Positions 26,877 through 40,104 of a stretch of DNA of 64,000 nt are shown here, in pieces (the stretch's first letter is position 1; the number at the start of each line of letters is the position of its first letter). The position numbers and the translations under genes were made by a program. The notes below the pieces were generated by a model that made no database searches, was not told the origin of the DNA, and saw only the letters and a program-made list of their open reading frames with translations. Origin of the DNA: Calothrix sp. NIES-4101 (GTDB lineage: Bacteria > Cyanobacteriota > Cyanobacteriia > Cyanobacteriales > Nostocaceae). The stretch is from assembly GCA_004296455.1 (NCBI GenBank), contig AP018280.1:5940794-6004793 (forward strand), in the 5' to 3' direction.

Positions 26877-27072
26877 ACCAACTATTAAACTTAATTTTTC
26901 TTTGCGTCGGTATTATCGTAATTATTTCAGACGAACCTGAGATGACTGGGATAAATAAGTTTTTCTGATTGATGAGTATTAACAGTCAGTGGCAAATCCC
27001 TAATTAATATCAAGATTCATATCACCACCCATAACCAATTGATAACTTTTCCAAAAACCTGCAAAAATAAGA

Positions 27073-28554
<1,482 letters not shown>

Positions 28555-29378: not shown

Positions 29379-32300
29379 ATGAAAGGGAATCCTGAGATAG
29401 AGGTATGTTCATCGTCAGTCCGAACTGCAATGGAAAATAAAGAAGTCGCCGAAGCATTAGAATCGAAGCAAACAGCAGAATTTAATAATGATATTCAAAC
29501 GACTCAACAGTGCTGTGGGGACAAACTCAAAGCGCTGGCGCGGGTAATTAGTCGAATTCGTGAATCGCTGGATTTAGACACAATTTTCAAAACAACTGTA
29601 ACAGAATTAAGAGAACTACTCTATGTAGATAGAGTTGCTGTTTTTTGTTTTTTCCCGGACTTGGGTTGGGAAGGGGAGTTTGTTTCTGAGGATATTAATG
29701 GGGTTTGGGATTCAATAATTCATAGTCAGGTTCGCGACTGTTGTTTTGGTGAAAAATTTGTATCGCTTTACCAAAAAGGGAAAATCAGTGTCATCTCAGA
29801 TATTTATCAAGATTGTTCTCAGGACTGTTATGTAGAATTACTAGAAAAATTCCAAATTCGTGCTTGTATTACTGCTCCTTTGCTCCAGGGCGAACAGCTT
29901 TGGGGTTTGTTATGTGTTCACCAATGTAGTGGTAAACGGGAATGGCTGAATTCAGAAGTGGAATTTGTTCGGCAAATAGCCGAGCATTTAGGAGTAGCGC
30001 TACAACACGCGGAATTATTAACACAGGCTAGGTATCAAATAGAGCAACAAAAAGCGCTGGCTTCAGTTATTGCTCGGATTCGCGACTCTTTAGATTTACC
30101 AACAATTTTTAAAAATACAGCTATTGAAGTTCGGAATTTACTCAAAGCCGACCGTGTGGGAGTATTTTATTTTGATCCCGAATCGGATTGGGAAGGAGAA
30201 TTTGTTTCCGAAGATGTCTCCCCAGAATATGATTCAGCAATGGCAACAAGGATTTATGATCATTGCTTCGGAGAATATTTTGCTCCTCAGTACAGCAATG
30301 GTCGTATCAACGTTATCTCTGATATCTATAGTCACGAATATAGTGATTGCTACATTAAGATTCTGGAAAAATTTCAAGTTCGTGCCAATGTTGTCGCTCC
30401 TCTACTCAAAGGCAAAGAATTATGGGGATTGTTATGTATCCATCAATGTGCCGCACCTCGACATTGGGATACATCAGAAATTGAGTTTGTGCAACAAATT
30501 GCTGGACAACTGAGTGTTGCTATTAAACAAGCCCAATATTTAGAGCAAACCCAGTTACAAACTGCACAACTAGTAGAAGCCGCCGAACGCGATCGCGCTG
30601 CCGAACGTCAGAAAGTAGTGAGTGACACGATCGAAAAAATTAGGCGATCGTTCGATTTAGAAGAGATTTTTCAAGCTACCTGCCAGGAGGTGAGAAAACT
30701 ACTGGAAGTGGATAGAGCAGTTGTTTATCGTTTTAATCCAGATTGGAGTGGCGAGTTTGTTGCGGAGTCTGTGACAGAAGGTTGGACTTTATTAGTTCAA
30801 CAACAATGGGAGCAGCCAGAATTACGAGCAAATGTTAGCGGATGCAGCCTCAAATCTCTGGCAACATTAACAACAGATACGCACCTCCAAGACACCCAGG
30901 GAGGAAGTTTTGTACGCGGAGAACTATTCAAAACTTGCCATGATATACATAATTCCGGGTTTAGCGACTGTTATGTTCGGATATTGGAAAGTTACCAAGC
31001 ACGAGCTTATATAATTATTGCTATTTATCATGGTCAAAAACTTTGGGGTTTACTAGCTGTTTATCAAAATTCAGCGCCCCGTCACTGGCAAGATTACGAA
31101 ATCCATTTGCTGATGCAGATTAGTACCCAAGTAGGGGTAGCATTACAGCAAAGTGAGTATTTTCAGCAAGTAAAAGCACAATCTGCACAATTAGAAAAAG
31201 CAGCAAATCGCCAGCGTGCCTTAGCCACTACAGTTGATAAAATTCGCCAATCGCTGGATATTGAAACCATCTTTCAAACAACTACACAGGAAGTTCGACG
31301 TTTATTGAATGTTGATCGGGTGGCAATTTATCGATTTTACCCAGGTTGGAGTGGAGAATTTGTCGCCGACTCCATAGTTGATGGTTGGATGCAGTTGGGG
31401 AAAACTCAACCCACTATGGAAAAACCCTTATTAGAAGTAGGGAAAACGGGGAAATACCCTCGTAACGAGACATTTGTACCAATTTTACAAGGGGAAAAAA
31501 TCTGGGGATTATTGGTGGCTTATCAAAATTCGCAGCCACGTTACTGGGAAGAAGAGGAAGTTAATTTACTCGCACAGGTAGGGGTGCAATTGGGTGTCGC
31601 ACTTCAGCAAGCGGAAACTTTAAAGCAAGTCCAAGCACAAGCTGCCCAATTAGCAAGAGCGACAGAACGCGAAAAAGCATTGGCGATGACAGTAGAGAAA
31701 ATTCGCCAATCTCTTGATTTAGATGTGATTTTTACGACTACAACTCAAGAAGTACGGAGTTTGCTCCAAGTAGAGAGGGTAGCAATTTATTGTTTCTATG
31801 CAGATAGTAGTGGTGAATTTTTGGCAGAGTCGGTTGCAGAAGAATGGATGCCGTTAGTAGGTAACCCATTATTAATGAAAAATACAACCATTCGTGAATT
31901 CCAAAGTGATTTGTATGGGCAGTATCAAACGGTGGCTGTAAATGATATTTATGCTCAAGCTTATTCGGATCGGCAATTAGCTTTTTTAGAGCAAATTCAA
32001 GCTCACGCATATGTAATTGTCCCCATTTTTCAAGGGGAACAATTGTGGGGATTACTAGCTGCTTATCAGAATGGCAAGCCCCGTCAATGGTTGGAAGACG
32101 AAATTAGTTTGTTGGCGCAGATTGGCTTGCAGTTGGGTGTAGCATTACAACAAGCCGAATTATTGGAACAAACAACACTACAAAAAGAGAAACTTAATCA
32201 AACACTCAAAAAATTGCAAGAGACACAAACCCAGCTAATTCAGGGGGAAAAAATGGCTGGATTAGGTCAGTTAGTAGCAGGGATAGCCCATGAGATTAAC

Positions 32301-33050
32301 AATCCCATTAATTTTATTTACGGCAATTTAAGTCATGTTGGAGAATATTCTGAGCATTTAATTAGATTGTTAAATCTATATCAAAAAGAGTTTCCGGGAA
32401 CCGGACAAGAAATTAAAGCGCTCGCCAGAAAAATGGATTTGGATTATATTCTCGAAGACTTACCTAAGACATTGGGTTCAATGCAGTTTGGAGCCGAAAG
32501 AATTTTGCAATTAGTTGAATCTTTGCAAACATTTTCACAACTAGACCGCGCCGAAATGAAGCCTGTTGATATTCATAAAGGAATTGATAGTACATTGTTG
32601 ATTTTACAACATCGACTGCGAGCTACTTCAACATCAACAACAATTGAAGTTGTCAAAGAATATGGCAAATTACCTCATGTTGAATGTTATGCCGCGCAAT
32701 TGAATCAGGTATTTATGAATATTTTGGGTAATGCTATCGATGCAATAGAAACACAGTATAAAGATAAACATTTAGACAATCCCCAAATTATCATTCATAC
32801 AGATGTATTGGATACAAAAATCATTAGGATATGTATATCTGATAATGGTTGTGGTATTCCTGAAGAATTGCGATCGCGCATTTTTGACCCATTTTTTACT
32901 ACTAAAGAACCTGGTAAAGGTACAGGGCTGGGTTTGTCAATTAGTTATCAAATTATCGTTGATAAACACGGAGGGAAAATTGAATATTTGTCAGAACCAG
33001 GTAAGGGAACAAAATTTTTGATTGAAATACCTGTTAAGCATGGTTGTTAA
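29379..33050 (+). CDS. Five-GAF cyanobacteriochrome-like sensor histidine kinase
   Basis: The 1223-residue protein has five tandem GAF domains (about 50-215, 225-390, 410-595, 612-750, 765-930), joined by short helical linkers, then HisKA (H971 in [12 protein letters not shown]) and HATPase (ending [18 protein letters not shown]). GAF1 and GAF2 carry DXCF motifs (DCCF at 120-123; DHCF at 294-297) plus the canonical bilin-type cysteine followed by Tyr (C150, C324) and LWGLL...HQC, as in DXCF cyanobacteriochromes. GAF3 keeps only the canonical cysteine (C531) and resembles red/green types. GAF4 lacks the segment carrying it, and GAF5 has Arg865 in its place. It is probably a multi-photosensor or a mixed light/redox sensor. 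No response regulator is adjacent. Met17 is an alternative start. Confidence 0.88.
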
Positions 33051-33147
33051 TTTGTGATTTAGCAGTAACTTGGTAAACTGCGAACTTTTAATTTTTGCAT
33101 AATCACTATGATGAATGTAAATGCTTTTATCAGCTACTTGGGGTACT

Positions 33148-33645
33148 ATGCAACCAAACCTCAAAGAACAATTTCTAAGTTGGTGTCAAGGCGATACTCC
33201 TCCAGAATCGCTCAGGGAAAGACTTGTTCGCTACTTAGAATTATTTCAAGATATTATTGTTATCTCTCTGTGTGCTGGCTTATTTTGTGTGATGGTGCTG
33301 CGACTCATGGATATGTTTTCCAGCTTGCTACACCCTCTAGAAGTTAGGCAAATTACGTCTGATATTTTGTTTATTTTGATTCTAGTAGAATTATTTCGTT
33401 TATTACTTGATTATCTGGAAGAGCAACGTATTTCTGTGGGTGCAGCAGTGGAAATTACAATTGTTTCATCATTGCGAGAAATTATTTTAAGTGGAGTTTT
33501 AGAGATTCCCACAACTCAGATTTTTGGAATTTCCATTTTTCTAGTTGTGTTAGGCGCAATTCTTGTGATTATGCCTTGGATGACACGTTTATTGGAATCT
33601 AATCATGTCAACTCTCACTCAATAGATACTCCAAAAAGGATGTAA
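33148..33645 (+). CDS. PsiE-like membrane protein
   Basis: From the ATG at 33148 the product is 165 residues; an in-frame ATG at 33121 would add nine. It has four hydrophobic helices and the PsiE (phosphate-starvation-inducible) family pattern: LFQDIIVISLCAGLFCVMVLRL, ILVELFRLLLDYLEEQRISV, then VSSLREIILSG and a last helix near LVVLGAILVIM. The family has no established molecular function. It is about 100 bases downstream of the GAF kinase gene, so the two may be linked in transcription. Confidence 0.75.
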   Translation: MQPNLKEQFLSWCQGDTPPESLRERLVRYLELFQDIIVISLCAGLFCVMVLRLMDMFSSLLHPLEVRQITSDILFILILVELFRLLLDYLEEQRISVGAAVEITIVSSLREIILSGVLEIPTTQIFGISIFLVVLGAILVIMPWMTRLLESNHVNSHSIDTPKRM

Positions 33646-33747: not shown

Positions 33748-36114
33748 TTAAACTGTAGCTTGTTTCGAGGGATTAATAGCGTATTGGTGATTATTACTTA
33801 GTATTATTAAAACAACAGCACCATTAGTTAATAATAAAGCGATCGCAGGTGCAACTAAGGGTATCCACCCAGCATAATTAATAAATATAAAACATGCACT
33901 AGCAAGTATTATTACTGAGCAGAGGAGAACTATACCCATAATTACTAAGCGACGAAATCGCCAGGCAATAAATCCTCCAAGCAAAGCCCAGCAAGCAATC
34001 CAGCCCAATTCTCCCCAAATCGACCAAACCCATAATAATGGTCTGTCATCTAAGACATAGCTGAGAATTTGACTAAGCATATGTGCATGAATTAACACAC
34101 CAGGAATTTTGTGGGCAGAACCTGCACCGTAGGGAGTTGACCAATAATCACCAGCACTGAGGTCAGCCATCCCAATTAATACAAGCCGGTTTTGGATGGC
34201 TTTAGGATTGACTTTATTGCTAAATATATCTTTGAGGGTGACTGTTTGGGCGATCGCTAGCGGGTCGCTCATGGCTCGGTAGTTTAATAATACTTGACTA
34301 CCGGATGCATCAATACTTTGATAGCCACCTGTGCGGTTTTCGATGGATGAAAATACTTTTTTACCTAGTTGAATATTGCCTTCTGGTGTAAATTTTGGCT
34401 TGATACTCTGTCTGTATAAATATCGAAATGCAAGCTGGGTACTGAATGCATAGCCAGTTGTACAGCGAGAAGTTGTATGCGGTGTCATAAATAACAAATG
34501 ACGACGAATAGCACCATCATAATCTTGGACAAAATCGCTAAACCCCAGCCGTGATTGTTTAATTTCTGGTGGTGGTAAAGTACCTGTAGGATCATCTTTG
34601 GCATCTGGACGCTTACAAACGCCAATTAAACGTTGACTTTGTAGTTGCTGGGCAAGTTCGGGTTTACGACTAGGATAATCGCGGTAAATATCCAAACCAA
34701 TGGCGACAGGTTGATGTTGTTCTAATTTTTGTAATAATTTGCTGATGGTAGTATCAGAAAGCGAGCCAAAGCGGGGTTCTGCATCCTGGGCTTGAATATC
34801 TTCGGGAGTTACGGTTACAATTAGCAGGCGATCGTCTGGTTTTTCTGGGATTCTGACACGCATTAACATGTCGAATGTAAACAATTCGACGGGAGATAGT
34901 AATCCTAAAAATCTAATTCCGGCTATAAATAAGGTGCTTACCAAACTGCATAGAAGAATTAAACGCAGTTCTCGACGATTTGGTAATAATTGAACTGGTT
35001 TCTTTTTGCCGCACCATTCCCACCAACTCGATGGACTTTCAGCAGGATTTTGACAAATTACGGGTAGCCAAGTTGCACAGGGAAATTCTGCTTCTAATCC
35101 TTGTAATTTTTCCCTGGCTTCACGCACAGAAAGATAAAGTGATTTACCTCCCGAAAAAGCAGCCAGAAAATGTTTGAGAAATTCCTGGGCAACTTTATCG
35201 GGAACAGGTTCCCGCATGACAATTACTTGGGGTAAATGTAAATCTGCTAAATCCTGTGCTAAGCCTAAACCATCACAAGAGTTAAAAATGGCTAATTTTA
35301 AACCATGCGAAATAGCTGTTCTCAAACCATATTTTAATTGTTCAATCGTTAATGTATCTGTGGCATTAATTTGCATACAACCTTTGCCCTGACTAGAACT
35401 ATGTCCGGCAAAAAATAAAATATCCCATTCTGCTTGCCAAAGTTTTTCATTTAGCTGTTGTAATGTTGGCTCGATTAAAAAAGTGATTTCTGCATCTGGG
35501 AGTTGTTGTAATATTTTTTGGTCTTGGATAGTATCAATTCCATGACTATTACCTAAAATACTTAATATTTTGACTTTCTTTTTGGCTTGATTTACTGCTT
35601 TTAGAGAACGTGCATATTCCGGGGGACTCAGAGCAATTTCTGCTTGTTGGTAATCCGATAAAAAATCCCACAAACACCAAGGCAATTTTAAAACGTTGCC
35701 ATCTTGCGCCACAATGAGTAAGCGAATTTCATCTTTTGGTGTTAAATGGGTACGTAATTTGCGATCTATTGTTAAAAAAGAATCTGTACTTAGCCAGCGA
35801 TTTAATTGAATTTGTAAATTTTGGGAAATTTCTGCAAATTCGGCATGGGAAATATGAGAAACTTCACTGTCATCCTCATCAATCTCAAATTCTGGATGTA
35901 TATTCCGAGTTCTTCGCAAAGCTAAATTAGCATACAAAGACTCATATAATAACAACCATTGTTGATAAAGAAAATCAAGATTTTGATTCGCAGGTAAACT
36001 ACCCACAAATTGCATTGGAGTTAATTCTTCAGATTCCCAAAACTGTGCAGTTACAGTTAGAAATCCACTCTGCAAATCTCCTTTTCCTAAATTTAAAATG
36101 ATGAGGCGATGCAT
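33748..36114 (-). CDS. CHAT-CHASE2 membrane protein (caspase-like domain plus sensor domain)
   Basis: The product is 788 residues from the ATG at 36114 (MHRLIILNLGKGDL). An in-frame TTG at 36156 would overlap the upstream stop by four bases and add 14 residues. The N-terminal half is a CHAT caspase-like domain with FFAGHSS (His252 counted from the TTG) and the AIFNSCDGLG cysteine (Cys294), so the His-Cys dyad is present. A helix near residue 400 leads to a CHASE2 extracytoplasmic sensor domain (about 420-690) and three more C-terminal helices. It sits downstream of the DUF1822 gene. Likely a membrane sensor that controls a cytoplasmic protease. Confidence 0.9.
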   Translation of the reverse strand: MHRLIILNLGKGDLQSGFLTVTAQFWESEELTPMQFVGSLPANQNLDFLYQQWLLLYESLYANLALRRTRNIHPEFEIDEDDSEVSHISHAEFAEISQNLQIQLNRWLSTDSFLTIDRKLRTHLTPKDEIRLLIVAQDGNVLKLPWCLWDFLSDYQQAEIALSPPEYARSLKAVNQAKKKVKILSILGNSHGIDTIQDQKILQQLPDAEITFLIEPTLQQLNEKLWQAEWDILFFAGHSSSQGKGCMQINATDTLTIEQLKYGLRTAISHGLKLAIFNSCDGLGLAQDLADLHLPQVIVMREPVPDKVAQEFLKHFLAAFSGGKSLYLSVREAREKLQGLEAEFPCATWLPVICQNPAESPSSWWEWCGKKKPVQLLPNRRELRLILLCSLVSTLFIAGIRFLGLLSPVELFTFDMLMRVRIPEKPDDRLLIVTVTPEDIQAQDAEPRFGSLSDTTISKLLQKLEQHQPVAIGLDIYRDYPSRKPELAQQLQSQRLIGVCKRPDAKDDPTGTLPPPEIKQSRLGFSDFVQDYDGAIRRHLLFMTPHTTSRCTTGYAFSTQLAFRYLYRQSIKPKFTPEGNIQLGKKVFSSIENRTGGYQSIDASGSQVLLNYRAMSDPLAIAQTVTLKDIFSNKVNPKAIQNRLVLIGMADLSAGDYWSTPYGAGSAHKIPGVLIHAHMLSQILSYVLDDRPLLWVWSIWGELGWIACWALLGGFIAWRFRRLVIMGIVLLCSVIILASACFIFINYAGWIPLVAPAIALLLTNGAVVLIILSNNHQYAINPSKQATV

Positions 36115-36152
36115 ATTTTTAAAGATAATTTTTAAACTCAATACACTTAAAC

Positions 36153-37337
36153 TCAAATTGTAAAATTCTCTGTCACTACAAAATTATCAACCTCAACCTG
36201 AACACTAAATTGAGTACCAACAGGACTTTTAAAGCGTTTTAATTGAATAATATTATCTTGCGATCGCGATTGAATTGATTGGATGATATTTCCTGATGCT
36301 GACAGTAATTTTAAGTTGATTGCTGCTGGTAAATATTCTTCTTGGCTACGACTGCGTAATTGAATCCGAATACCAATTCTGTCATCTGTTTCTGTATCTA
36401 ATCCCATGATTAATATGACTTCAGCATTGGGTAGATTTAGAGATTTTGCTCTTTTGATAGTAGCATCACTTTCTTCTGCTGCTTTCCGAAAGCTAAAGCC
36501 TAAACTTGCATTTGTGCCCAATAAATTATCCAAAGATTGCCAGCTTTCTTCAAAAGTATTTTGCAACCACTGACTAATATTTGCGGCGACTTGACGAGGA
36601 CTCAGATTAGTTGACACTTCTCCTTGACGTAATTGATATAATTTTTGTCGCCAATCATCATTACTTACTAAATCACCCCATAAAGCAAAGGGTAATTCTA
36701 ATCTGGGTTGAATAATATTTGGATTGGTTAATCTGGATAATAAATTTTCTGCTTGGATGGCTGGTACGGGAGATAAACTAGCCACAGGAGCACAGGTTTT
36801 TTCTTCAGGATTGAGTTGGCTCACTACCCACAAAACATTTAAATCCGTAATTATTTCCTCTGTATCCAAACTATATGTTCTATCAGTAGAGTTATATCTT
36901 CCTGAAACTTTGATTTGCTCATGGGTGGTATATCCCCATACTCGCATTGATAATTCATCGGGATTGATTTGAACTGCTAGATAATAATCTCCGACTAATT
37001 TGGGCACATCTATCCATTCTTGGGGGATGGAATATTCACTATTGTCTAGAGATTTTTCTGGGATAATAATTAGACGTTTATGTCCCCAGTTTATAGCAGT
37101 ACCATTGACGACATCCCAAAAACTAGAAAGTAATTTTTCATTGAATACAAGACTTGTTTGTTGTTCGTATTCTGTTTGTAACCAAGGCAGAAGAATTTGC
37201 AGAGAAATTTGATTTAAGTATGCATTCCACTGCCCTTTTGCAGTTGATTGTAACTGACTTTTTAACCAAGATTGTTGTGCTAAATCTGGAGATATTTGAA
37301 ATTCTAATTGGGTAAGGTTTTCAGTTAGGAAAGTCAT
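36153..37337 (-). CDS. DUF1822 family protein
   Basis: The 394-residue protein matches the cyanobacterial DUF1822 family: LEFQISPDLAQQSWLKSQ near the N-terminus, NQISLQILLPWLQTEYEQ, a central DYYLAVQINPDELSMRVWGYTTH segment, and a late domain with VILIMGLDTETDDRIGIRIQLRS. No catalytic motif or membrane segment is visible; the last 100 residues look like a beta-sandwich. Members usually lie beside CHAT-CHASE2 and sigma-like genes. Here it is between such genes: the sigma-type gene is 50 bases upstream and the CHAT-CHASE2 gene starts at its stop codon. Confidence 0.85.
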   Translation of the reverse strand: MTFLTENLTQLEFQISPDLAQQSWLKSQLQSTAKGQWNAYLNQISLQILLPWLQTEYEQQTSLVFNEKLLSSFWDVVNGTAINWGHKRLIIIPEKSLDNSEYSIPQEWIDVPKLVGDYYLAVQINPDELSMRVWGYTTHEQIKVSGRYNSTDRTYSLDTEEIITDLNVLWVVSQLNPEEKTCAPVASLSPVPAIQAENLLSRLTNPNIIQPRLELPFALWGDLVSNDDWRQKLYQLRQGEVSTNLSPRQVAANISQWLQNTFEESWQSLDNLLGTNASLGFSFRKAAEESDATIKRAKSLNLPNAEVILIMGLDTETDDRIGIRIQLRSRSQEEYLPAAINLKLLSASGNIIQSIQSRSQDNIIQLKRFKSPVGTQFSVQVEVDNFVVTENFTI

Positions 37338-37388
37338 TTTCGTTGATATTTGGGATTTAATATTATGGATTCTCTCAGCACTTATTCA

Positions 37389-38585
37389 TTACTCTCTGTG
37401 ATAATGGGCTTGCAACCATTCCTCCAAGACTGTGCTGATATACTTAACCACGTCAGAAGTTACGGAAATATGCAGCGTTTGCTGACTCCAACGAGTAAGT
37501 GTCAGTAATAATGATTCCCGTGTTTTTGATAATCTGCGGGATACGGTGTATTGTTGAATGGCTAATTCTTGGGCTATTTGCTGCTGTGTTAAGGTTTTTT
37601 GGTAATACAACTGTAGCAGTTGTTGAGAAGTGGCATCTAGTTTTGCGATCGCCTCTGTTAAAATATTGTTGATTTGTTTTTTTTGTTCGAGACGTGCAGC
37701 TTTTTCTTCTTCTTGAATCCATTCCGTTAACAAGGATTCCTGAAAATTATCAACTAATTCATCCTGTAATTCCCCCTCTTCATACCCAGGTTTCGGCGCA
37801 TTCAGAGATTTCACCGGCGGATACAAATATTTACGCACTTGGTTACCGCATTCAATTAACCAACGTTCCATATTTTCTTTGCTACATTCTCCGCCTGGAG
37901 AGGCAAGTTGATGACGCATGTGGTTGTAGGCTGCTGCAATTGCTTGCCAAGTTTCGCTGTCTGGGGCTGCTGTTTGCCTTAATCGGGTATCTTTGCGGGG
38001 TAGATAAATACTTTCAAAACAAGTCCAAGCCAGTAAATAACGCTCGCGAGTTGCGGCATCAAATCCAGCATTTTGTAGAGATTCTGTCAAGAGTTTGCGA
38101 CTGGTTTTGAGTAATAAAGCCCAATTGTTACAAAAATTAGCTTCCTTAGTTTGTTTGAGGTAATCGCGAATAATATTGCCAAAAGCAATACTCGCATAAG
38201 CCTTAACGCTACCACTCACATCAGGGTTGCAAGATTTGAGAATTTTGGGAACAGATGCGATCGCAACTTGAAATAAGTCTGGCATCTTATCATATGATTG
38301 TTGCGATCGTAGCATCATTTTCTGTACAGTCCAGTAACAAGGCTCCTGTAGATAAGCTGACATATGTCCTAAAGCCACTTCTGGTTTCTCCGATTTTTGC
38401 GTTTGTTTATGCCAATAAACAGCCCAAAAATCCTCATTCACCTTAGCTTCAGAAAAATTATTTAAACAAGCTTTGATACTGCGATATAGTTTCGCATCAG
38501 TTACCCAACCACTAAAGCGATTGGACTCAAATTGCAAAAAAGTGGAAAAAAGCTCAACCAAATTTTGACGCGCACGCATAAGCAA
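37389..38585 (-). CDS. Sigma-70 family RNA polymerase sigma factor (divergent)
   Basis: The 398-residue protein ends in a sigma region 4-like helix-turn-helix: IAKLDATSQQLLQLYYQ, then KTLTQQQIAQELAIQQYTVS and RRLSKTRESLL. The upstream 280 residues are long and poorly conserved compared with ordinary sigma factors; I cannot mark a canonical region 2. This kind of divergent sigma factor is typical in cyanobacterial clusters with DUF1822 and CHAT proteins. It is the first gene of the DUF1822 / CHAT-CHASE2 run on the minus strand (50-base gap), so it likely directs or responds to that module. Met3 is an alternative start. Confidence 0.8.
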   Translation of the reverse strand: MLMRARQNLVELFSTFLQFESNRFSGWVTDAKLYRSIKACLNNFSEAKVNEDFWAVYWHKQTQKSEKPEVALGHMSAYLQEPCYWTVQKMMLRSQQSYDKMPDLFQVAIASVPKILKSCNPDVSGSVKAYASIAFGNIIRDYLKQTKEANFCNNWALLLKTSRKLLTESLQNAGFDAATRERYLLAWTCFESIYLPRKDTRLRQTAAPDSETWQAIAAAYNHMRHQLASPGGECSKENMERWLIECGNQVRKYLYPPVKSLNAPKPGYEEGELQDELVDNFQESLLTEWIQEEEKAARLEQKKQINNILTEAIAKLDATSQQLLQLYYQKTLTQQQIAQELAIQQYTVSRRLSKTRESLLLTLTRWSQQTLHISVTSDVVKYISTVLEEWLQAHYHRE

Positions 38586-38706
38586 TACTTGTCGGTTAAA
38601 GGAAAAGTGAAAAGGGAGATGCGGGATTCACAGAGAAAGACGGATAACAAATAGAGGCATTTCTTTGCATCTCTGACTCCGAACCTAGCAGCACCTATAA
38701 CTCAAA

Positions 38707-40104
38707 CTACCAAGGATTCCCAATTAATGTAAATCCAGCCCAATAATAAGGATGGGATAACTCTCGATTATCGAGATTAGCAACAACTTCGGCGGGTAAC
38801 GAATTGTTACCGCGCAGAGCCGGATTATTTTTTAAACTCACCTGCTGTTTGAGCATCGCAATTTGGGTTTGTCGCAGTGCTTCTGCTTTCATCGGATTAG
38901 CTTTGAGTTGCTGGTAAAACTGAGTCATCAAAGCCAGTGTTCCCCCATCATCAACGCTCCAAAGACTCGCAATCACGGCTTGTGCCCTCGACATCACAGC
39001 AAAACCTGCAAAGCCTAACTCAGCTTTGGCATCACCCAATGCAGTCCGACAAGCGCTTAATACTAATAACTTTACTAGGGGTTCATCCAAGCCTAAACTT
39101 TTGATTTCATCTAAGCGAACTTGTGCATCCCAAAACTGAATATAAGATTGTTGTACAGAACCGGGAGAAAATTCTGCATGGGTAGCTAAATGAACAATTC
39201 CAAATGGATAAAGAGCGCGTTGTTTTTTCAGATTTTGGAGGGTAAATTCTTTATTTAAGAGTGATTTACCTTGCCATTTATTACTAGTAATACTAGACAA
39301 TTCTAAAGGAACAGCAGGCAAGGGTTCTTTATTTTTAAACTCTGATGCGCCCATTGCCAAAACTTGGGTTTGCGTAATATTGGCTGGTTGTAAATCTAAT
39401 AAATTAAAAGCTGGAATAATCCCCAAACTATATTTCTCAACTAAAAATTGTTTTCCATCAGAAATTGCCGCCAAAGGAACAGTTCGCAAGCCACCACCTA
39501 AACAAAATATGAGATTATTAATTCCCTGTGCTTGTAGTTCACTTTCTAAAGGAGAAATCAGCAAGTCGTATACCTGTTTGCCCGAACTAAGATAATCACT
39601 ACGCTGAGAATTTGGATTAACAATATCTTTGCGAAATTTACTGACTAGACTGACAACAATATCTCTTTTTGCCTTGGTAATCCGCTTATGAATTGGGGAT
39701 TTACCTGGTGTCACCAAGATTAATTCCAGATGTTTGGGAGTTGGGACAGCGTATATTAAAGCACTTTTGGTTCCGTTTTGTTGATGGATTTGCTCCAGAA
39801 TCCGACTAATTTCCCTAACTTCAATCATTCGATTAGAAGGCAGTTTTCCCTGGGCGTATTCATCATACTGCTGCTTCCATCCCTGTTCCACATGTATAAT
39901 CGCTGAGTTAATATCCTTATTATCAAGTAACTTTGTCAGAACTTCTGGTTGGAGACGCGATGCGGGAAGAGTAATAGATTTTGTTGCTGGAGACACAGCA
40001 TTGAAAGAATTAAGTGATTCCCTGGAAATTTTTAGCCCATACAACCCAATAATAGATAAACTGAGTGCCGAAAAGGCTAGTAGAGTTAATTTGGTTTTGT
40101 TCAT
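38707..40104 (-). CDS. CHAT domain protein (caspase-like peptidase)
   Basis: The 465-residue protein has one N-terminal hydrophobic segment (LTLLAFSALSLSIIGLYGL), a helical region, then a CHAT domain (about 170-465) with the dyad His309 (FGIVHLATHAEF) and Cys352 (LVLSACRTALG). The domain is intact, including GFAGFAVMSRAQAVIASLWSVDD. There are no visible TPR repeats, unlike many cyanobacterial CHAT proteins. It is directly upstream of the sigma/DUF1822/CHAT-CHASE2 run on the same strand, 121 bases away. Probably a secreted or membrane-anchored peptidase. Confidence 0.88.
   Translation of the reverse strand: MNKTKLTLLAFSALSLSIIGLYGLKISRESLNSFNAVSPATKSITLPASRLQPEVLTKLLDNKDINSAIIHVEQGWKQQYDEYAQGKLPSNRMIEVREISRILEQIHQQNGTKSALIYAVPTPKHLELILVTPGKSPIHKRITKAKRDIVVSLVSKFRKDIVNPNSQRSDYLSSGKQVYDLLISPLESELQAQGINNLIFCLGGGLRTVPLAAISDGKQFLVEKYSLGIIPAFNLLDLQPANITQTQVLAMGASEFKNKEPLPAVPLELSSITSNKWQGKSLLNKEFTLQNLKKQRALYPFGIVHLATHAEFSPGSVQQSYIQFWDAQVRLDEIKSLGLDEPLVKLLVLSACRTALGDAKAELGFAGFAVMSRAQAVIASLWSVDDGGTLALMTQFYQQLKANPMKAEALRQTQIAMLKQQVSLKNNPALRGNNSLPAEVVANLDNRELSHPYYWAGFTLIGNPW

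What the first reader, a model, noticed from the sequence alone, without database searches (positions are those of the whole stretch)
33748..40104. Same-strand cluster of CHAT peptidase, divergent sigma factor, DUF1822 and CHAT-CHASE2: a candidate sensor-protease-transcription system
Four genes lie on one strand: CHAT (38707), sigma-70-like (37389), DUF1822 (36153) and CHAT-CHASE2 (33748). The last three are nearly contiguous (50-base gap, then overlap or a short gap). CHASE2 is an extracytoplasmic sensor domain; both CHAT domains keep the His-Cys dyad (H252/C294; H309/C352). A membrane sensor with a caspase-like protease, beside a sigma factor, suggests signal-triggered proteolysis that frees or changes the sigma factor or a DUF1822 partner, by analogy to gasdermin- or TPR-CHAT proteases and regulated anti-sigma cleavage. 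The functional model is inference; the linkage is seen.
Basis: partly seen in the sequence, partly recalled or inferred. Interest (0 to 1): 0.8.

Follow-up and report, generated by a model that had tools for sequence, protein, structure and literature searches.

The report
Sensor protease wired to a sigma factor
Cyanobacteria carry a gene cassette that appears to link an outside-facing sensor with a caspase-like protease, through a two-part connector protein, to a gene-switching sigma factor; the core was predicted before, but the connector's two-part design and the outer parts look new.

Summary
The linkage is not chance: DUF1822 lies directly downstream in 76 of 80 related sigma loci, and beside 34 of 36 sigma hits in 146 phylum genomes. 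Three points go beyond the section read. (1) DUF1822 is modelled not as TPR but as two modules: the N half sorts exactly by upstream sigma class (2 changes), the C half (6) and the CHAT protease (7) do not, and long-sigma loci mostly lacking a CHAT neighbour have another C half. (2) DUF928 follows 60 of 66 CHAT-CHASE2 genes and 0 of 17 relatives without CHASE2. (3) The CHAT at 38707 is probably exported, so unlikely to cut the sigma factor. Best reading: an outside-in relay, DUF928 > CHASE2 > CHAT > DUF1822 > sigma, working like, but not a member of, CRISPR Csx29-Csx30-sigma. Binding and cleavage are inferred.

The parts
38707..40104 (-). Exported-type CHAT protein (465 aa): N-terminal hydrophobic segment residues 6-24, CHAT 174-463, dyad H309 (39178-39180) and C352 (39049-39051)
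   Evidence: relatives with signal-peptide-like N-termini
37389..38585 (-). Long sigma-70-type factor (398 aa; likely start 38579): sigma region 2-like part about 78-148 (boundary by eye), helical middle, low-confidence linker 259-283, region 4 about 300-371, C-terminal helix
36153..37337 (-). DUF1822 protein (394 aa), proposed adaptor between sigma factor and CHAT protease
36618..37337 (-). DUF1822 N half (residues 1-240, alpha+beta), sorts by upstream sigma class
36156..36617 (-). DUF1822 C half (residues 241-394): low-confidence stretch with conserved W257 and W266, then beta sandwich; 'type A', the type found with the CHAT protease
33748..36156 (-). N-terminal domain (EACC2 by architecture) - CHAT - TM - CHASE2 - TMs (802 aa; likely start 36114); dyad H252 (35401-35403), C294 (35275-35277); CHASE2 at 33973-34935

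Best explanation
An outside-in signalling cassette. Shown by sequence: a membrane protein carries a CHAT protease domain before its first transmembrane segment and a CHASE2 sensor domain between its transmembrane segments; next to it lie DUF1822 and a sigma-70-type factor; in relatives a DUF928 protein with a signal-peptide-like start goes with CHASE2. Inferred: DUF1822 is a soluble two-sided adaptor. Its N half holds the sigma factor, probably inactive; its C half (low-confidence stretch with two conserved tryptophans plus a beta sandwich) docks on the N-terminal-domain-CHAT part of the membrane protein. When CHASE2 is engaged from outside (by DUF928, by a product of the exported CHAT protein, or by a small molecule), the CHAT domain cuts or releases DUF1822 and the sigma factor goes free to start its genes. 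It works like the CRISPR-linked Csx29 (CHAT) - Csx30 (sigma inhibitor) - CASP-sigma chain, with a membrane sensor in place of the RNA-guided one.
For: Linkage: DUF1822 directly downstream in 76 of 80 sigma loci; 34 of 36 sigma hits have DUF1822 within 500 bases on the same strand, and all 20 genomes with such a sigma have DUF1822. Of 59 distinct DUF1822 genes in a sample not chosen by sigma, 49 have an upstream gene of one of three sigma or sigma-like classes, 34 a CHAT protease next, 57 one or the other. Modules: mean identity of long-sigma type A against long-sigma type B is 43% (N half) and 17% (C half); against DUF1822 of the short sigma-like class 17% (N) and 29% (C). Changes of upstream class: N tree 2 (also in 20 of 20 cut-downs to the C length), C tree 6 (6-9 in 20 bootstraps), CHAT tree 7. 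A free-standing type A C half (190 aa) sits directly before the CHAT-CHASE2 gene in L033. All 90 complete CHAT proteins of 94 keep H and C. DUF928 follows 60 of 66 CHAT-CHASE2 genes with room and 0 of 17 without CHASE2. Other ends of the protease are ligand-binding: periplasmic-binding-protein-like in L136, L147-L151, L156, L157 and L169. CHAT proteolysis of a sigma inhibitor is shown for Csx29/Csx30 (PMC10028731, passages).
Against: No binding or cleavage data and no complex model. Presence of a CHAT gene downstream changes 15 times on the N tree and 16 on the C tree, so bare presence does not sort better on the C half. Type A/B changes only once on the sigma tree, so that link has no independent replicate among long sigmas. 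The type A reference set was the 31 non-long-sigma genes with a CHAT neighbour, so their own type A label is partly built in. The C tree is far from free of sigma-class signal: 6 changes against a mean of 24.8 with shuffled labels. Fourteen type B loci do have a CHAT gene (8 same strand at 222-625 bases, 6 divergent), with no hidden type A piece. Five type A long-sigma loci (L022 on a short contig, L138, L163, L167, L170) show no CHAT gene. Mirror-tree partial correlations: N half slightly closer to sigma (0.54 against 0.41), the protease prefers neither half (0.58 and 0.57). No PDB fold or sequence match ties DUF1822 to Csx30. The window locus lacks DUF928. No promoter motif for the type A operons.
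Confidence: 0.5

Rival explanations
1. Autopeptidase switch, as the 2021 eLife paper proposes: the CHAT domain cuts its own chain after sensing; DUF1822 is a scaffold that passes the signal to the sigma factor without being cut.
For: Published proposal for this architecture; variable ends on a constant protease module.
Against: Does not by itself explain why the DUF1822 C half differs between long-sigma loci that mostly have and mostly lack the CHAT gene or why a C half stands alone before the protease.
Confidence: 0.17
2. The sigma factor is the substrate: CHAT cuts its low-confidence linker (259-283) between the middle region and region 4, and DUF1822 presents it.
For: The linker is the lowest-confidence part of the sigma model.
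Against: Cutting there would separate regions 2 and 4 and so should spoil promoter recognition (inference); 60 long-sigma loci keep the sigma with a type B DUF1822, 46 of them with no CHAT gene in the locus.
Confidence: 0.1
3. Non-proteolytic partner switch: sensing changes the affinity of the CHAT domain for DUF1822, which lets go of the sigma factor; the dyad serves another purpose.
For: All module evidence fits binding alone.
Against: His-Cys dyad in 90 of 90 complete relatives suggests that catalysis is selected.
Confidence: 0.15
4. Neighbourhood only: operon mates without a shared pathway.
For: Many sigma-DUF1822 pairs have no CHAT neighbour.
Against: Recurrent order across genera and CHAT proteases paired with different upstream classes.
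Confidence: 0.05

Closest known systems
EACC2-caspase / DUF1822 / ECF-sigma neighbourhoods (eLife 2021, PMC8195603; authors Kaur et al. recalled)
   Same: Constant N-terminal domain + caspase-like domain, variable C-terminus including CHASE2, adjacent sigma and DUF1822 genes.
   Different: Here the sigma is a long (398 aa) class; DUF1822 is modelled as alpha+beta plus beta sandwich, not TPR; an exported-type CHAT gene and, in relatives, DUF928 belong to the cassette; the two-module behaviour of DUF1822 is not in the section read.
Type III-E CRISPR Csx29 (TPR-CHAT) - Csx30 - CASP-sigma (PMC10028731, passages seen)
   Same: CHAT protease, a larger partner protein and a sigma factor in one locus; by analogy protease-relieved sigma inhibition.
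   Different: Membrane CHASE2 sensor in place of Cas7-11; profiles for Csx29 and the III-E sigma match only far below cut-off; no Csx30-like fold match among the 50 rows shown for DUF1822.
RseA/RsiW-type regulated proteolysis of anti-sigma factors (recalled, and named in PMC10028731 passages)
   Same: Envelope-side signal to sigma factor by proteolysis (proposed).
   Different: DUF1822 has no transmembrane segment; sensor and protease are one membrane protein.
HetF (CHAT protein of heterocystous cyanobacteria; recalled)
   Same: CHAT domain in a cyanobacterial protein.
   Different: NCBIfam HetF model scores 19.3 bits against a cut-off of 1200.

Membership tests
[quoted passage not shown]
   CHAT found by Pfam after about 200 N-terminal residues shared by relatives; no EACC2 profile was available, so the name rests on architecture and gene context
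EACC2-caspase/DUF1822/sigma system (eLife 2021) | Variable C-terminus, CHASE2 among the types | tested here: met
   CHASE2 in the window; WD40/nSTAND ends in L015 and L035, periplasmic-binding-protein-like ends in L136, L147-L151, L156, L157, L169; pentapeptide repeats in L016, L019, L159
EACC2-caspase/DUF1822/sigma system (eLife 2021) | Adjacent sigma factor and DUF1822 genes | tested here: met
   the window's sigma is long, the paper says ECF
EACC2-caspase/DUF1822/sigma system (eLife 2021) | DUF1822 is a TPR protein | tested here: not met
   AlphaFold2 model is alpha+beta plus beta sandwich; Pfam finds DUF1822 only
Sigma-70 family | Regions 2 and 4 | tested here: met
   TIGR02937 103 bits over 78-360; region 4 Pfam over cut-off; best fold hits are sigma chains, at low TM-scores 0.22-0.25
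Type III-E CRISPR CASP (Csx29/Csx30/sigma) | Csx29-type TPR-CHAT | tested here: not met
   NF041237: upstream CHAT 16.8 bits against 300; no match for the CHASE2 protein
Type III-E CRISPR CASP (Csx29/Csx30/sigma) | III-E sigma subfamily | tested here: not met
   NF041236 19.5 bits against 100; at E<=1 the model also rings in 11 of 14 control genomes
Type III-E CRISPR CASP (Csx29/Csx30/sigma) | Csx30-like inhibitor | tested here: inconclusive
   No PDB fold match at E<=0.001, no Csx30 in the 50 rows shown; no sequence hit at E<=1
Type III-E CRISPR CASP (Csx29/Csx30/sigma) | Cas7-11 and crRNA | not tested
   The window was not scanned for Cas genes or repeats
HetF | HetF equivalog score | tested here: not met
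   19.3 bits against 1200
Membrane anti-sigma (RseA type) | Transmembrane anti-sigma factor | tested here: not met
   No hydrophobic segment in DUF1822
CHAT proteases | Proteolytic activity | not testable with these tools
   Only the dyads could be checked

The most novel reading that the evidence does not exclude
DUF1822 is a plug-and-socket adaptor family: its N half is specific for one of several sigma classes, its C half for the N-terminal-domain-CHAT protease, and CHASE2 for secreted DUF928, so that cyanobacteria build many parallel outside-in protease-to-sigma pathways (this genome has 13 DUF1822 genes, 14 matches) by recombining halves. The CRISPR type III-E CHAT-inhibitor-sigma chain could be a CRISPR-captured or convergent version of such a cassette.
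Probability: 0.35. Interest if true: 0.85.

Novelty: new variant of a known kind. Interest (0 to 1): 0.6.

Why it matters
If right, it turns a domain of unknown function into an adaptor with two named partners and gives a caspase-like protease family in cyanobacteria a concrete output, transcription. Several parallel pathways per genome would then be open to test by swapping halves. It would also offer a membrane-sensor counterpart to CRISPR-guided protease-to-sigma signalling.

Tried and rejected
Relation to Csx30: no fold or sequence match, so kept as analogy. Relation of the sigma to the III-E sigma: the model is generic at this level; it was the best NCBIfam hit of one short sigma-like protein, L147, at 19.9 bits against 100, left as a lead. 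PADLOC: the upstream CHAT matches model BovA (33.7 bits, E 4.9e-9), not followed up. Mirror-tree among 28 dereplicated operons: all pairs correlate at about 0.89-0.93, little to separate. Independent replication of the A/B switch on the sigma tree: only one change. Hidden type A pieces in the 14 exceptional type B loci: none found. Promoter motif: hits in the type A set came, in my reading, from the coding end of the upstream CHAT gene; in the type B set a block recurs upstream of six loci of one clade and is left as a lead. Upstream CHAT as a general partner: of 15 short-frame relatives that I picked from the list, only L173 lies beside a DUF1822 operon, so it looks like a lineage-specific addition. 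A first DUF928 count (60 of 64 and 0 of 19) was wrong, because my CHASE2 model missed the CHASE2 domains of L017 and L018 that Pfam finds; after rechecking it is 60 of 66 and 0 of 17. Paper searches: DUF1822 2 papers, CHASE2+CHAT+sigma factor+cyanobacteria 2, Csx29+Csx30+RpoE+CHAT 3, DUF928 1, listing only, 'CHAT domain'+CHASE2 0, HetF+PatU3+protease 3, listing only, EACC2 3, of which one relevant.
Full report
What is there. Domain calls are strong. The sigma factor matches the sigma-70 superfamily over residues 78-360 (103 bits, cut-off 42.9). Its AlphaFold2 model (mean pLDDT 83.4) has six PDB matches at E<=0.001: one sigma-32 chain, three F chains of Thermus transcription complexes (the sigma subunit, recalled) and two integrative models named by gene codes; TM-scores are low, 0.22-0.25 by query length, as expected if domains sit differently. 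Gaps: 51 bases between sigma and DUF1822; with the better conserved starts (M3 and M15) about 38 bases between DUF1822 and the CHAT-CHASE2 gene and 127 between the upstream CHAT and the sigma gene. Hydropathy gives P0001 clear segments near 399-417, 741-759 and 767-785 around CHASE2, P0004 one at 6-24, and none in P0002 or P0003.

Is the order conserved? A genome-contig scan with four paralogous sigma factors confirmed 374 places, of which the best 80 were kept and examined. DUF1822 lies directly downstream on the same strand in 76 of 80, or 73 of 76 with at least 1.5 kb of DNA downstream. Of the four without, L039 runs off its contig, L098 has a short DUF1822 remnant, and L054 and L081 have none. 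A CHAT protease of the P0001 kind is on the same strand within 6 kb in 38 of 80 and on either strand in 45 of 80. The short exported-type CHAT gene is directly upstream in 14 by script, and in L025 too, where the ORFs overlap by start choice; in L033 it stands between DUF1822 and the protease, and in L041 it goes with the protease, on the other strand from sigma-DUF1822. In a sample of 146 genomes of the phylum there are 36 sigma hits at E<=1e-20 in 20 genomes (at most 12 first-look candidates per genome were scored) and DUF1822 hits in 59 genomes (its match list is cut). 34 of 36 sigma hits have DUF1822 on the same strand 62-491 bases away, and all 20 sigma genomes are among the 59 (genomes are related, so the hypergeometric value there is only a guide). 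This genome has 14 DUF1822 matches, two of them pieces of one gene, and four long sigma factors, each followed by DUF1822.

What the rest of the family looks like. I fetched the first 60 non-own rows, by E-value, with 6 kb on each side where the contig allowed; later rows were not fetched. L126 drops out because its DUF1822 is in short pieces; L130 and L158 hold the same two genes. That leaves 59 distinct DUF1822 genes: upstream is the long sigma in 29, a short sigma-like class in 18, a 470-aa class in 2, none of these in 10; a CHAT protease is next downstream in 34; 57 of 59 have one or the other. The short class was seeded from ten ORFs found next to DUF1822, of which four have an NCBIfam sigma match at E<=0.01 and six have none; I use it as a class of upstream partner, and its sigma nature is likely, not shown for each member. 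The 470-aa class has at best a weak region 4 match. The protease ends vary: CHASE2, periplasmic-binding-protein-like, nSTAND-WD40, HEAT-like, TPR, and pentapeptide repeats in front.

DUF1822 is two modules. The AlphaFold2 model (mean pLDDT 85.8) shows an alpha+beta N half, low-confidence stretches between 242 and 291 that hold conserved W257 and W266, and a C-terminal beta sandwich. There is no TPR array, contrary to the wording of the 2021 paper. I aligned 150 DUF1822 ORFs of 290-560 aa from all loci (147 distinct) and cut at window residue 240. C halves were typed by identity to two reference sets, the non-long-sigma genes with a CHAT neighbour (31) and the three other long-sigma paralogues of this genome; margins are clear, +0.12 to +0.24 against -0.24 to -0.43 in the 108 long-sigma rows. 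Type A: 90, type B: 60. Of 108 records with a long sigma upstream, 48 are type A, of which 40 have the CHAT protease next on the same strand and 43 have one in the locus; 60 are type B, of which 8 have it next, at 222-625 bases, and 14 in the locus. All 42 records with another or no upstream class are type A, which is partly built in, since 31 of them are the reference. Mean identities: long-sigma A against long-sigma B, N half 43%, C half 17%; long-sigma A against the short sigma-like class, N half 17%, C half 29%; against the 470-aa class 19% and 23%. So the N half goes with the upstream partner and the C half crosses between partner classes. Trees agree: the upstream class changes 2 times on the N tree, the minimum for three classes, 6 on the C tree and 7 on the CHAT tree (136 of 150 DUF1822 rows and 66 of 90 CHAT rows had a class). 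Cutting the N half to the C half's 145 columns left 2 changes in 20 of 20 draws; bootstraps of the C half gave 6-9 in 20, or 5-8 with type A rows alone; shuffled labels give a mean of 24.8 on the type A C tree, so the C half too keeps much class signal. In L033 a C half of type A exists as its own 190-aa frame right before the CHAT-CHASE2 gene.

Results against. Bare presence of a CHAT gene downstream changes 15 times on the N tree and 16 on the C tree: it does not sort better on the C half. The A/B type changes only once on the sigma tree, so within long sigmas the link of C type to protease is one event. Fourteen type B loci have a CHAT gene nearby; those proteases, with L126, form one clade inside the set that goes with the short class or no sigma, and no type A piece hides in these loci. 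This genome's type B locus L011 also has a CHAT-CHASE2 gene and DUF928 about 5 kb away on the other strand, outside the fetched stretch. L138, L163, L167 and L170 are type A without a CHAT gene in the locus; L022 shows none on its 5.6-kb contig. Mirror-tree comparison does not separate the halves clearly. Trees used quick or FastTree methods, with long branches flagged. The motif search found nothing for type A operons.

The outer parts. DUF928 (Pfam over cut-off in L025, L048, L012 and L078) begins with signal-peptide-like sequences (by eye). With a model from those four, it is found within 2.5 kb downstream on the same strand in 60 of 66 CHAT-CHASE2 genes that have at least 1.2 kb of room and in 0 of 17 CHAT genes without CHASE2; four with CHASE2 and three without had less room (two and none with DUF928). 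The count joins (64 genes tagged by my CHASE2 model) with L017 and L018, whose CHASE2 only Pfam finds; the 17 were all scanned by Pfam. The six misses are the window, L072, L122, L146, L017 (whose next gene is a DUF928 match below cut-off) and L018 (next gene without a Pfam match). The four seeds are counted among the 60, and two genes are counted twice. The window's genome has seven DUF928 matches, none inside the window, five of them beside CHASE2-like matches by the coordinates. The upstream CHAT protein has an N-terminal hydrophobic segment; L033 and L041 show lipobox-like ends and about ten of 15 short-frame relatives signal-peptide-like ends (read by eye, motifs recalled). It is therefore probably exported. 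One of those 15 is beside such an operon. Dyads: H309/C352 in 18 of 18, H252/C294 in 24 of 24, and H and C in 90 of 94 of the wider protease set, the other four being truncated.

Mechanism. I think it most likely that DUF1822 holds the sigma factor with its N half and docks on the membrane protease with its C half, and that an outside signal through CHASE2 makes the CHAT domain cut or release it. The best precedent is Csx29-Csx30-CASP-sigma, where a CHAT protease cleaves a sigma inhibitor (PMC10028731; abstract start and passages seen). Shown here: gene order, topology by hydropathy, dyads, module inheritance. Inferred: every binding, cleavage and release step, and the direction of DUF1822's effect.

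What is known. The eLife 2021 paper (PMC8195603; section 9 read whole, other passages by search) describes a constant EACC2 + caspase protein with variable ends, CHASE2 included, and states that most of the neighbourhoods independent of TRADD-N add an ECF sigma factor and DUF1822; it proposes autopeptidase activation and a transcriptional output. The finding is therefore a member of that predicted system, with a longer sigma factor and added outer parts. The N-terminal domain is called EACC2 here by architecture and context, as no profile was at hand. DUF1822 was found in only two held papers and DUF928 in one (listing only); a two-module DUF1822 is in none of the passages that I read of the two. 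The held library lacks most subscription papers.

Noticed in passing
27068-27165 (+): TPP riboswitch, the only Rfam gathering-level hit in the window.
   Followed up: no
29379-33050 (+): 1223-aa histidine kinase with five GAF stretches next to the cassette on the other strand.
   Followed up: no
33121-33645 (+): PsiE-like membrane protein (42.6 bits) just past the end of the CHAT-CHASE2 gene, on the other strand, where relatives often have DUF928.
   Followed up: partly
L013 6147-8911 and L014 5777-8541: DUF1822 plus a 470-aa upstream gene in two copies with equal DUF1822 scores in this genome; each is followed on the other strand by a gene with the same N-terminus, 723 aa in L013 and 547 aa in L014.
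   Followed up: no
L020 2808-8773: One DUF1822 gene flanked by two CHAT proteases of this kind, each with one stop inside the matched frame.
   Followed up: no
L009 10526-12724; L053 12828-18086: Type B sigma-DUF1822 pairs beside a C14 caspase (L009, divergent) and beside an nSTAND-WD40 protein whose N-terminus resembles it by eye (L053).
   Followed up: partly
L011 6738-10517; L152 7073-11338; L139 10742-13221: Two-partner-secretion exoproteins next to or near DUF1822 operons, in L011 14 bases after DUF1822: possible sigma targets.
   Followed up: partly
L010, L070, L091, L099, L118 and, with a variant first block, L117; 86-119 bases upstream of sigma: Conserved GAAAC-N-TGTAGTAAAG block in one clade of type B loci, promoter-like.
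   Followed up: partly
L119 3429-6059; L134 7144-9912: TPR-CHAT proteins next to DUF1822 genes, downstream in L119 and upstream in L134.
   Followed up: no
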